From NCBI RefSeq assembly GCF_001282785.1, contig NZ_CVUA01000001.1:806001-870000 (forward strand): a DNA stretch of 64,000 nucleotides. The letters run 5' to 3'. Below, piece after piece: positions 51,971 to 55,030 of this stretch; the stretch's first letter is position 1, and each line of letters begins with the position of its first letter. The translations under genes were made by a program, and so were the position numbers. The notes below the pieces were generated by a model. The model made no database searches, had not been told where the DNA came from, and was given only the letters and a program-made list of their open reading frames with translations. This DNA comes from Halolamina sediminis. GTDB taxonomy: Archaea > Halobacteriota > Halobacteria > Halobacteriales > Haloferacaceae.

Positions 51971-52900
51971 ATGAAGCAGTGGCTCCGGGAGCAGGTCGCA
52001 CGCGCCTACCAGCGCCTGCTCCGCCGCGAGGGCGACGGCGGCCCGTCCCACGTCGCGATCATTCAGGACGGGAACCGCCGCTACGCCCGGGAACAGGGCG
52101 ACGACGCCACCGAGGGCCACCGCGCCGGCGCTGAGACCACCGAACAGGTGCTGGAGTGGTGTCAGGACCTCGGCGTGAAGGAGCTCACGCTGTACGCGTT
52201 CTCCACGGAGAACTTCAAGCGCCCGCCCGAGGAGCGGGAACACCTCTACGACCTGCTCGAGGAGAAGCTCACCTCCATCGCGGACAACGACCGCATCCAC
52301 GAGAACGGGGTTTCGATCCGCGCGATCGGCGAGACCGACCGCCTGCCCGACCGCGTCCGGGAGGCGATCCGCTACGCCGAGGACCACACCGCGGACTACG
52401 ACTCGTTCCGGCTCAACGTCGCGCTCGCGTACGGCGGTCGGAACGAACTCCTCCGGGCCGCCCGGGACGTGCTGGCGGACGTCGAGGCCGGCGAGCTCGA
52501 CCCCACGGCGATCGACATCGACCTCGTCGACGACCGCCTCTACGGCCGGGAGGTCCGGGACGTGGACCTGATCATCCGCACCGGCGGCGACGAGCGCACC
52601 TCGAACTTCCTCCCGTGGCACGCCAACGGCAACGAGGCTGCGGCGTACTTCTGTGCGCCGTACTGGCCGGAGTTCTCGAAAACCGACTTCCTGCGCGGCA
52701 TCCGTACCTACCAGTCCCGCGAACGCTCGTGGCAGCGCACCCGCCGGGAGCGGGCGGCCGCGATCGTGCGCGCGGTCGCCGAGACCGAACTCGCGGAGGC
52801 CCGAACCGTCGCGGGCCGCCTCCGCGAGAAGCTGCCCGGCGGGGCGGCGCCCGAACTCGACGCCGAACTCGACGGCTCGACTGCGGAGTCGGCAGACTGA
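51971..52900 (+). CDS. uppS: Cis-prenyltransferase (UppS), catalytic-type subunit
   Basis: 309 residues from the ATG at 51971; an upstream ATG at 51944 is possible. The catalytic Asp33 is in IIQDGNRRYA, followed by the Glu81 and Asn81-type segment YAFSTENFKRP. IIRTGGDERTSNFLPW binds diphosphate. At residues 245-255 the family's C-terminal RxG (as in RRFG) is replaced by TYQSRERSWQ, and a long Ala/Glu tail follows. The enzyme adds cis-isoprene units to make the polyprenyl lipid carrier. The adjacent convergent homologue has the missing motif. Confidence 0.9.
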   Translation: MKQWLREQVARAYQRLLRREGDGGPSHVAIIQDGNRRYAREQGDDATEGHRAGAETTEQVLEWCQDLGVKELTLYAFSTENFKRPPEEREHLYDLLEEKLTSIADNDRIHENGVSIRAIGETDRLPDRVREAIRYAEDHTADYDSFRLNVALAYGGRNELLRAARDVLADVEAGELDPTAIDIDLVDDRLYGREVRDVDLIIRTGGDERTSNFLPWHANGNEAAAYFCAPYWPEFSKTDFLRGIRTYQSRERSWQRTRRERAAAIVRAVAETELAEARTVAGRLREKLPGGAAPELDAELDGSTAESAD

Positions 52901-52933
52901 CTCGGCACGCGGGCAGCCGAGTCGGCGGACTGA

Positions 52934-53542
52934 TCACTCCCCGAACCGCCGCTGGCGGTCCTCGAACTCCCGCACTGCCCGGAGGTAGTCACGCTTCCGG
53001 AAGTCCCGCCAGTTCACGTCGGTGAAGTACAGCTCCGAGTACGTCGACTGCCAGATCAGGAAATCGGAGAGCCGCTCGGCGCCGGTTTTGATCAGCAGGT
53101 CCGGCTCCGCCGGGAACACGAGATGATCCGTCACCGTCTCCTCGTCGACCGCCTCGGGGTCGAGCTCGCCGGCCGCCACGTCCTCGGCCATCTCCCGGAC
53201 CGCGCGGGCGAACTCCCCGCGGCCGCCGAGGCCGACGTTGATCCGGATCGGGGCGTCGGCGCGTTCGGCGCTGTCCGGGCCGCGGACCGCGACCGCTCTG
53301 GGGGCGTCGATCCCGCGGAGCTCCCGGACGAGCGTCGGCACGACCGCCTCGTCGAGCACCGACACCGAGACGGTCACCCGTTCGGCGCCGTAGTCGAACG
53401 CCCAGCCGAGCGTCCGTTCGAGCGTCTCGTAGGCGCCCTGTTCCAGCAGGTCCCGTTCCGTCAGCACGAGCGCGACGTGGGCGGGGCCGTCGGCGTCGGC
53501 GAGGCGGTGGCGGAGGGCGAGGTAGGCGTCGTACGCTCCCAC
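52934..53542 (-). CDS. Cis-prenyltransferase paralogue lacking the catalytic motif, NgBR-like
   Basis: 202 residues from a GTG at 53542 (VGAYDAYLALRHRLADADG); an open frame continues 84 nt upstream. The C-terminal half is a textbook UppS end: DLLIKTGAERLSDFLIWQ, TYSELYFTDVNWRDFRKRDYL, and the final RQRRFGE with the RxG motif at 199-201. The N-terminal catalytic DGNRR motif is missing: the corresponding strand reads ALVLTERDLL. It cannot be a normal catalytic subunit alone. It ends 33 bp from uppS, tail to tail. A TATA-like CTTTTCG lies about 27 nt before the GTG. Confidence 0.85.
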   Translation of the reverse strand: MGAYDAYLALRHRLADADGPAHVALVLTERDLLEQGAYETLERTLGWAFDYGAERVTVSVSVLDEAVVPTLVRELRGIDAPRAVAVRGPDSAERADAPIRINVGLGGRGEFARAVREMAEDVAAGELDPEAVDEETVTDHLVFPAEPDLLIKTGAERLSDFLIWQSTYSELYFTDVNWRDFRKRDYLRAVREFEDRQRRFGE

Positions 53543-53674: not shown

Positions 53675-55030
53675 GTGAACCGGAGGCTCAGGCGTGACGC
53701 GGCCTTCGCCGCGGTCTCCCTGCTCGCGCTCGCAGCGCCGCTGCTCGGTCGGGCGACGGCGCTACCGTTCCTCGCCGTCGCCGGCGCCGCGGCGCTGCTG
53801 ATCGAGGACGGCCCGTTGTTCGAACTGTTCGCCCGCCCGCGGGACCGACAGGCCGGCCGCCTCTACGGCCTCGCGGCGTTCTCGCTGTCGGCGGCCGTCC
53901 TCGCCGTCCTCGCGGCGCCGCCGGTCGCCGCCACCTACACGATGCCGTTACCGGCCTTTGCCGCCAGCGTCGTCACCGTCGGCGTCGGCAACCTCGGCGC
54001 CACGGCTGTCCGCGACCGCTTCGACGAGCAGTTCCTCGTCGTCTCGACGTTCGCCGTCGTCGCGTTCGCCGCGGCGCTGTTCGCCCAACTGGCCGTCGTC
54101 GCGCTGGCGGCGATGCCGTTCGCCTCCGGGAGCGTCGACGCCGGCCTCGTGGCGGCCGCGCCGACGTTCACGTTCCACGCCGCGACCGCGGCGCTGGTAG
54201 CCGCGATCACCCGCTCGATGCTCTCGCCCGGCGACGCCGGCGCGGTGACGTTCGCCGTCGGCGCGGCGATGCTCGTCGTCGGCGCGCTCGCGCCCGCGGT
54301 CCACGTCCTCGATGTGGGGCTCGCGCTGGGGGTCGCGCTGTTCCTCGGCGGCGTCACGTACGCCACCGGCACCGCCTCCGTCGAGGGGATGCTCTCGGGC
54401 GTGCTGCTCTGTCTGGCCGCCATCGGGCTCGGCGGGCCGGGCTGGTTCGTCATCCTACTCACCTTCTTCGGCGTGGGCTCGCTCTCGACGAAGTTCCGCT
54501 ACGAGGAGAAAGCCGACCGCGGCGTCGCCGAGGGGAACGACGGCGCCCGGGGGCTAGGCAACGTGCTCGGTAACGCCGGCATCGCCCTCGTTGCCGTCGT
54601 CGGCTTCGCGGCTGCGGGCGATCTCCCGGTGGATGCCGAGCTGTTCCGGCTGGCGTTCGCTGGCTCGCTCGCGACGGCGACGGGGGACACGCTCTCCAGT
54701 GAGATCGGCGGCTTGTTCGACATGCCGCGGCTGGTCACGACCGGCGAGCGCGTCCCGCCGGGCACCGACGGCGCGGTCACTTGGCAGGGCGAGCTCGCGG
54801 GCGTCGTCGGCGCGGCGCTAGTCGGCGTGCTGGCGGTGGCGCTGCTCGGCGTCACCCGCTCGCCGCCGGTCGTGGTCGCTCTCGTGACCGCCGGGGGGGT
54901 CGCCGGGATGACGGCCGACAGCCTGCTCGGTGCCACCGTCGAGGGCGACCGCCTCGAGAACGAGACGGTGAACCTCCTCGCGACGCTGTCGGGGGCGCTG
55001 GCGAGCGTCCTGCTCGCGTTCGTGCTGTGA
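53675..55030 (+). CDS. DUF92 family membrane protein (VTE6/TMEM19-related)
   Basis: 451 residues from a GTG at 53675 (VNRRLRRDAAFAAVSLLA), with about ten spans. A TATA-like CGTTAAG lies about 28 nt before it. The conserved DUF92 core has GVGSLSTKFRYEEKADRGVAEG (a lysine/arginine-rich loop), ARGLGNVLGNAG, and the motif TGDTLSSEIGGLF. The plant member VTE6 phosphorylates phytyl phosphate, so polyprenyl or isoprenoid-phosphate kinase activity is plausible here. It is divergent from the cis-prenyltransferase paralogue. Confidence 0.85.
   Translation: MNRRLRRDAAFAAVSLLALAAPLLGRATALPFLAVAGAAALLIEDGPLFELFARPRDRQAGRLYGLAAFSLSAAVLAVLAAPPVAATYTMPLPAFAASVVTVGVGNLGATAVRDRFDEQFLVVSTFAVVAFAAALFAQLAVVALAAMPFASGSVDAGLVAAAPTFTFHAATAALVAAITRSMLSPGDAGAVTFAVGAAMLVVGALAPAVHVLDVGLALGVALFLGGVTYATGTASVEGMLSGVLLCLAAIGLGGPGWFVILLTFFGVGSLSTKFRYEEKADRGVAEGNDGARGLGNVLGNAGIALVAVVGFAAAGDLPVDAELFRLAFAGSLATATGDTLSSEIGGLFDMPRLVTTGERVPPGTDGAVTWQGELAGVVGAALVGVLAVALLGVTRSPPVVVALVTAGGVAGMTADSLLGATVEGDRLENETVNLLATLSGALASVLLAFVL

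What the first reader, a model, noticed from the sequence alone, without database searches (positions are those of the whole stretch)
51971..53542. Two cis-prenyltransferase homologues with complementary motif loss: a possible archaeal NgBR-DHDDS-like heteromer
UppS (51971-52900) keeps the catalytic DGNRR motif with Asp33 but lacks the C-terminal RxG motif: at residues 245-255 it reads TYQSRERSWQ. The neighbour (52934-53542) ends with the canonical RRFGE but its N-terminal catalytic strand reads ALVLTERDLL, with no DGNRR. In eukaryotic cis-prenyltransferases DHDDS supplies catalysis and NgBR supplies the C-terminal RxG, and two-subunit enzymes have been reported in some archaea as far as I recall. 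The two genes lie tail to tail, 33 bp apart, so one locus encodes both halves. The motif loss is seen directly; complex formation is inference.
Basis: partly seen in the sequence, partly recalled or inferred. Interest (0 to 1): 0.85.

Follow-up and report, generated by a model that had tools for sequence, protein, structure and literature searches.

The report
Haloarchaeal two-subunit cis-prenyltransferase gene pair
Two neighbouring genes in this salt-loving archaeon very probably encode the two halves of one enzyme that makes the long lipid carrier used to build surface sugars: one half does the chemistry and the other lends its tail to the active site, as in the human NgBR-DHDDS enzyme, and the same split is found across this whole archaeal phylum.

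Summary
UppS (51971-52900, +) keeps every catalytic residue tested but one variable arginine, and has no in-register C-terminal RxG. Its convergent neighbour (52934-53542, -) has lost DGNRR and the other N-terminal catalytic residues and ends RRFG plus exactly one residue. This is no quirk of one genome: in 58 haloarchaeal genera, 67/67 catalytic orthologues lack RxG, and 63/63 partners lack DGN and end RxG plus one residue. 144 of 145 haloarchaeal genomes hold both genes; the 112 linked pairs are all convergent. The split runs through almost all other families of the phylum, including Methanosarcina mazei, whose only other two cis-prenyltransferases, MM_0618 and MM_1083, are reported to form a heteromer. 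In human NgBR the terminal carboxylate one residue after RxG touches the DHDDS active site, and adding or removing one residue reduces activity; the archaeal partners keep exactly that length. So this is a new member of a known kind (heteromeric cis-prenyltransferase). Complex formation in this organism is inferred, not shown. Less expected are the phylum-wide universality, the fixed convergent arrangement, and a DUF92 gene that travels with the accessory subunit.

The parts
51971..52900 (+). uppS, catalytic subunit (DHDDS-like): active site kept (D33 G34 N35 R36 R37, H50, S78, E80 N81 R84, R203, R209, S211, E222; only the E. coli Arg39 position differs, Ala46), no C-terminal RxG, C-terminal extension of about 54 residues
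52934..53542 (-). accessory subunit (NgBR-like pseudoenzyme): DGNRR replaced by LTERDLL, active-site and tunnel segment shortened, ends RRFG plus one residue
52901..52933 (.). 33-bp convergent intergenic spacer, holding most of an inverted repeat (GACTCGGC ... GCCGAGTC) that could serve as a terminator hairpin for both genes; its folding energy is not unusual (z -0.9)
53675..55030 (+). DUF92 (PF01940, arCOG02245) membrane protein, divergent from the accessory gene; predicted isoprenoid kinase-like enzyme; a homologue lies within 700 bp of 50 of 63 haloarchaeal accessory genes. The GTG start at 53675 is my choice

Best explanation
The two genes encode the subunits of one heteromeric cis-prenyltransferase that makes the long (probably C45-60) polyprenyl diphosphate from which the glycosyl carrier lipid is made. 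UppS binds both substrates and catalyses IPP condensation (supported by family and residue conservation). Its cis-prenyltransferase domain pairs with the catalytically dead partner as in the family's normal dimer (inferred). The partner's C-terminal tail R-R-F-G-E-COOH crosses the interface into the UppS active site, where backbone NH groups of Phe and Gly hold the IPP phosphate, the RxG arginine lies between the two diphosphate sites, and the terminal carboxylate meets UppS Arg36 and Arg84 (all inferred by homology to human R290-L291-G292-K293 and DHDDS R37 and R85). Neither half has a complete conventional site, so the cell should need both.
For: (1) Complementary motif loss is invariant: 67/67 haloarchaeal UppS have DGNRR and no RxG; 63/63 partners have T/S/A in place of the catalytic Asp, lack the R39, H43, S71 and R77 equivalents, and end RxG plus exactly one residue. 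(2) The same holds in the other Halobacteriota families sampled: 25/26 partners end RxG+1, the other KFG+1. (3) Co-occurrence: 145/145 haloarchaeal genomes have the partner and 144 have UppS. Across the phylum sample every genome at least 90% complete with UppS also has a partner, including short divergent ones in G153 and G162, and one family (f17) lacks both. (4) Linked pairs: 112/112 convergent in haloarchaea and 40 of 41 in other families. (5) M. mazei-level genome G276: its MM_0014 gene is over 99% identical to PDB 7caq, and its only other PF01255 genes are one UppS-type and one partner-type gene, which by elimination are MM_0618 and MM_1083, reported as a heteromeric enzyme making C45-50 products (PMC8131916). 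(6) PMC7573591: the NgBR C-terminus crosses into the DHDDS site, its carboxylate contacts R37 and R85, and deleting K293 or adding one residue diminishes activity; the UppS equivalents R36 and R84, and also E80 and N81, are invariant in haloarchaea. (7) The top Foldseek hits of the UppS model are DHDDS chains; the partner model aligns end to end with NgBR, Z 13.8, rmsd 4.3, 180 of 197 residues.
Against: No direct evidence of a complex in any haloarchaeon. The genes are not co-transcribed, and in 33 of 145 haloarchaeal genomes they are not seen linked (one of these because UppS is missing from the draft). MM_0014 of M. mazei lacks RxG but is an active homodimer (PMC8131916). Two methanogen UppS-type proteins (L195, L203) carry an out-of-register R-S-G or R-A-G near the C-terminus. 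Haloarchaeal partners keep R200, S202 and E213 equivalents, of which NgBR keeps only the Glu, so the partner is not an exact NgBR analogue. Some genomes have a second UppS copy but only one partner.
Confidence: 0.91

Rival explanations
1. UppS works alone as a homodimer without RxG, like M. mazei MM_0014, and the neighbour is an unrelated or merely regulatory pseudoenzyme.
For: MM_0014 is an active RxG-less homodimer (PMC8131916); the pair is unlinked in some genomes.
Against: The partner is universal and its RxG+1 tail is invariant, which is unexplained if it never enters an active site. MM_0014 keeps a substitute TLGG tail, whereas UppS here continues into an extension of median 54 residues. 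The M. mazei orthologues are reported as a heteromer.
Confidence: 0.05
2. The partner forms a catalytically inactive homodimer that binds IPP or diphosphate and acts as a sensor or carrier, using the retained K194/R200/S202/E213-equivalent residues.
For: Haloarchaeal partners retain K, R, S and E at the E. coli R194, R200, S202 and E213 positions.
Against: It does not explain the reciprocal RxG loss in UppS or the exact C-terminal length; except for E213 these positions are not conserved in partners from other families.
Confidence: 0.03

Closest known systems
Methanosarcina mazei MM_0618 + MM_1083 heteromeric cis-prenyltransferase (cited in PMC8131916)
   Same: Orthologous pair: catalytic subunit without RxG (44% identity to window UppS) plus accessory subunit ending RRYGK (41% identity to the window partner).
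   Different: Unlinked in Methanosarcina; tail to tail, 33 bp apart here. Which locus tag is which subunit, and that these two genes are that pair, was inferred by elimination.
Human DHDDS-NgBR (NUS1) cis-prenyltransferase
   Same: Division of labour; accessory subunit with a hydrophobic strand plus T-E in place of D-G (LVITE in NUS1, LVLTE here); RxG plus one residue at the C-terminus; catalytic subunit with a C-terminal extension after the core.
   Different: Here the partner has no N-terminal membrane segment; partner-NUS1 identity is only 18.5%; products are presumably shorter; equivalence of the DHDDS helix-turn-helix is unproved.
Archaeoglobus fulgidus heteromeric cis-prenyltransferase (from memory: Sompiyachoke and colleagues, 2022; not in the held library)
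   Same: Archaeal two-subunit enzyme in the same phylum.
   Different: Not compared by sequence here.
Bacterial homodimeric UppS (E. coli IspU)
   Same: Fold and catalytic residues of the UppS subunit.
   Different: E. coli carries both DGN and RRFG in one chain; here they are split between two proteins.

Membership tests
Heteromeric cis-prenyltransferase (DHDDS-NgBR kind) | Catalytic subunit with DGNRR and the substrate-site residues but no C-terminal RxG | tested here: met
   67/67 haloarchaeal orthologues
Heteromeric cis-prenyltransferase (DHDDS-NgBR kind) | Accessory subunit of cis-prenyltransferase fold lacking DGNRR and the other N-terminal catalytic residues | tested here: met
   63/63; fold in model m12215054ac1f
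Heteromeric cis-prenyltransferase (DHDDS-NgBR kind) | Accessory subunit ends in RxG followed by exactly one residue | tested here: met
   63/63 in haloarchaea, 25/26 elsewhere with one KFG+1; requirement in human NgBR from PMC7573591
Heteromeric cis-prenyltransferase (DHDDS-NgBR kind) | Both subunits always occur together | tested here: met
   144/145 haloarchaea with both; exceptions are drafts
Heteromeric cis-prenyltransferase (DHDDS-NgBR kind) | Orthology to an archaeal pair shown to be heteromeric | tested here: met
   M. mazei-level genome G276, by elimination plus PMC8131916; tree groups
Heteromeric cis-prenyltransferase (DHDDS-NgBR kind) | Physical complex, activity dependent on both subunits | not testable with these tools
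   needs co-purification, assay, or a multimer prediction that the tools do not offer
Eukaryotic NgBR/NUS1 orthologue group | N-terminal transmembrane segment | tested here: not met
   partner is 202 aa and begins about 20 residues before strand 1
Eukaryotic NgBR/NUS1 orthologue group | Specific common ancestry with NUS1 | tested here: inconclusive
   NUS1 falls beside the archaeal partners, but on a very long branch with weak support, 68/77; profile match to NUS1 E 8e-6 over the full length
Eukaryotic DHDDS | C-terminal helix-turn-helix that mediates tetramerisation | tested here: inconclusive
   C-terminal extension present and predicted helical; phmmer alignment extends to DHDDS chain residue 287 but the structural alignment stops near DHDDS 268
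Homodimeric UppS | DGNRR and RxG in the same chain | tested here: not met
   neither protein has both

The most novel reading that the evidence does not exclude
The heteromeric cis-prenyltransferase is an ancestral feature of the phylum Halobacteriota that never reverted to a homodimer there, kept as a convergent gene pair since the ancestor, and the archaeal accessory subunit and eukaryotic NgBR descend from one common pseudoenzyme (shared T-E replacement of D-G and RxG+1 end), so that the split in the human dolichol enzyme would have an archaeal origin.
Probability: 0.22. Interest if true: 0.72.

Novelty: new member of a known kind. Interest (0 to 1): 0.47.

Why it matters
It says that the dolichol-type carrier of haloarchaea, and of nearly the whole phylum, is made by a two-part enzyme built on the same active-site-sharing principle as the human NgBR-DHDDS complex, in which mutations cause disease. 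The database name 'undecaprenyl diphosphate synthase' for either gene alone is then misleading. It offers archaeal models without a membrane anchor on the partner, in which the role of the C-terminal carboxylate, and the origin of the split enzyme, can be tested genetically.

Tried and rejected
Chance or annotation error for the motif loss: rejected by the orthologue survey. Possible partnerless genomes G153, G162 and G171: each proved to have a short divergent partner ending RRFG plus one residue; in G171 it is again convergent with UppS. An RxG missed by alignment in UppS: none in 67 haloarchaeal proteins; two methanogen cases are out of register. A natural fusion of the two genes (a Rosetta stone) was not seen in the genomes read. 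A class-wide loss of the E. coli Arg39 diphosphate ligand looked special at first but the position is variable in methanogen orthologues too, so I do not count it. A shared terminator hairpin in the 33-bp spacer: present but not more stable than shuffles. A heterodimer prediction could not be run, because the tool folds single chains. Asgard and other archaeal phyla were not reached by the searches made. The primary M. mazei heteromer paper was looked for by a DOI recalled from memory and is not held; a search for Archaeoglobus fulgidus cis-prenyltransferase papers found none.

Full report
What was checked. The two genes are exactly as described: UppS 51971-52900 (+) with D33-G34-N35-R36-R37 and TYQSRERSWQ where RxG should be, and a 202-aa paralogue 52934-53542 (-) with ALVLTERDLL in the catalytic strand and a terminal RRFGE; the stops are 33 bp apart. 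Both are PF01255, the second only over its C-terminal half, and they are the only two cis-prenyltransferases of this 2.84-Mb haloarchaeal genome.

Is it a quirk or a rule? A class survey (145 haloarchaeal genomes, 58 genera, 10 families) found the paralogue in all 145 and UppS in 144 (the missing one is a 120-contig draft). In 112 genomes the two are within 20 kb, always convergent; 50 of these are within 400 bp. I read both proteins from representatives of all 58 genera: 67 of 67 UppS keep D26, G27, N28, R30, S71, N74, R77, R194, R200, S202 and E213 (E. coli numbering) and none has RxG in register; 63 of 63 paralogues have T/S/A at D26, nearly always E at G27, L at R30, no counterpart of R39, H43 or (62 of 63) R77, and end R-R-F/Y-G plus exactly one residue. 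The paralogue's segment between strand 1 and the second half of the fold is 67 residues (median), against 111 in UppS, 109 in E. coli UppS and 78 in human NUS1: the part that carries the allylic site and tunnel is cut down, as in NgBR.

Beyond haloarchaea. Profiles of both proteins over 148 genomes of the phylum find the pair in nearly every family. Of 26 partner sequences read from other families, 25 end RxG+1 and one KFG+1. Three genomes that seemed to lack the partner have a short divergent one (G153, G162, G171). Only two MAGs of 87-89% completeness have UppS alone; one family (f17, five genomes) has no PF01255 gene at all, and one 76%-complete MAG has none either. By the automatic count the pair is convergent in 40 and same-strand in 1 of the linked cases outside haloarchaea, and unlinked in 72; G171 adds a further convergent case. 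A conserved convergent pair is unusual; the simplest reading is an ancestral arrangement retained in part of the phylum. In a tree the catalytic subunits form one group (99/88); the accessory subunits fall together except for three very long branches.

Link to a proven heteromer. One Methanosarcina genome (G276) encodes a protein over 99% identical to the crystallised M. mazei MM_0014. Its only other PF01255 genes are a UppS-type protein without RxG and a partner ending RRYGK. PMC8131916 states that the other M. mazei paralogues, MM_0618 and MM_1083, form a heteromeric enzyme making C45-50 products. By elimination these are the orthologues of the window pair (44% and 41% identity). That the two locus tags map to these two genes is my inference.

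Mechanism. In the human enzyme (PMC7573591) the NgBR tail R290-L291-G292-K293 crosses the dimer interface. Backbone NH groups of L291 and G292 bind the IPP-site phosphate, the G292 carbonyl contacts N82 and R85, and the K293 carboxylate contacts R37 and R85; deleting K293 or adding one residue reduces activity. The haloarchaeal partner has the same end, one residue after the glycine in every case, and the UppS residues it would meet (R36, E80, N81, R84) are invariant in all 67. E. coli UppS, a homodimer, runs nine residues past its RRFG. [quoted passage not shown] Equivalence to that domain is not shown: the sequence alignment runs to DHDDS chain residue 287, but the structural alignment stops near 268. 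The best Foldseek matches of the UppS model are nevertheless DHDDS chains, and the partner model matches NgBR end to end (Z 13.8, rmsd 4.3 over 180 residues), although equally good matches to homodimeric enzymes exist.

Shown: motif pattern, conservation, co-occurrence, gene order, folds, orthology. Inferred: heterodimerisation, tail insertion, need for both subunits, product length, role in dolichyl phosphate supply.

Limits. Lack of RxG alone does not prove a heteromer: MM_0014 lacks it and is an active homodimer (PMC8131916). Two methanogen catalytic subunits have an out-of-register RSG or RAG. No multimer prediction, assay or genetics was possible here. Both models are of moderate confidence (mean pLDDT 80 and 79; the partner's last four residues are under 50), so they speak for the fold and not for the tail's place.

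Context. A DUF92 membrane protein gene (53675-55030, +) diverges from the partner gene; PMC5898192 had noted that DUF92 (arCOG02245) sits with uppS (HVO_2318 in H. volcanii) in archaea and suggested a kinase step in isoprenoid metabolism. In my set 50 of 63 partner genes have a DUF92 homologue within 700 bp, including several where UppS is elsewhere, so the constant neighbour of DUF92 appears to be the accessory subunit.

Verdict. The finding is real and its reading is right: a haloarchaeal heteromeric cis-prenyltransferase, a new member of a known kind. Its interest lies in universality across a phylum, the exact tail length that makes the human-like mechanism testable, and the possible archaeal origin of the eukaryotic split, which I could not test.

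Noticed in passing
53675-55030 (+): DUF92 (PF01940) gene diverges from the accessory subunit gene; a homologue accompanies that gene in 50 of 63 haloarchaeal representatives, even where uppS is elsewhere; a candidate polyprenol-related kinase.
   Followed up: partly
L137, 689-2074 (-): A third, divergent cis-prenyltransferase-like protein (LIPDGHRRYADERG, ends LRRNEGR) in one haloarchaeon (G002), unlike both subunits.
   Followed up: no
L130, L133, L134, L135 (whole loci): Second UppS copies in genomes G060, G097, G067 and G104, all also without RxG, with only one accessory gene per genome, suggesting that one partner may serve two catalytic subunits.
   Followed up: partly
51971-52900, residue 46: The E. 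coli Arg39 diphosphate-ligand position is mostly Ala (or T, P, K) in haloarchaeal UppS, in an acidic loop; it is also variable in methanogen orthologues.
   Followed up: partly
phylum family f17 (genomes G151, G160, G169, G178, G185): Five related genomes (75-91% complete) without any PF01255 gene: apparent joint loss of both subunits.
   Followed up: partly
52895-52935: Inverted repeat GACTCGGC...GCCGAGTC spanning the two converging stops; possible shared terminator, folding energy ordinary.
   Followed up: yes
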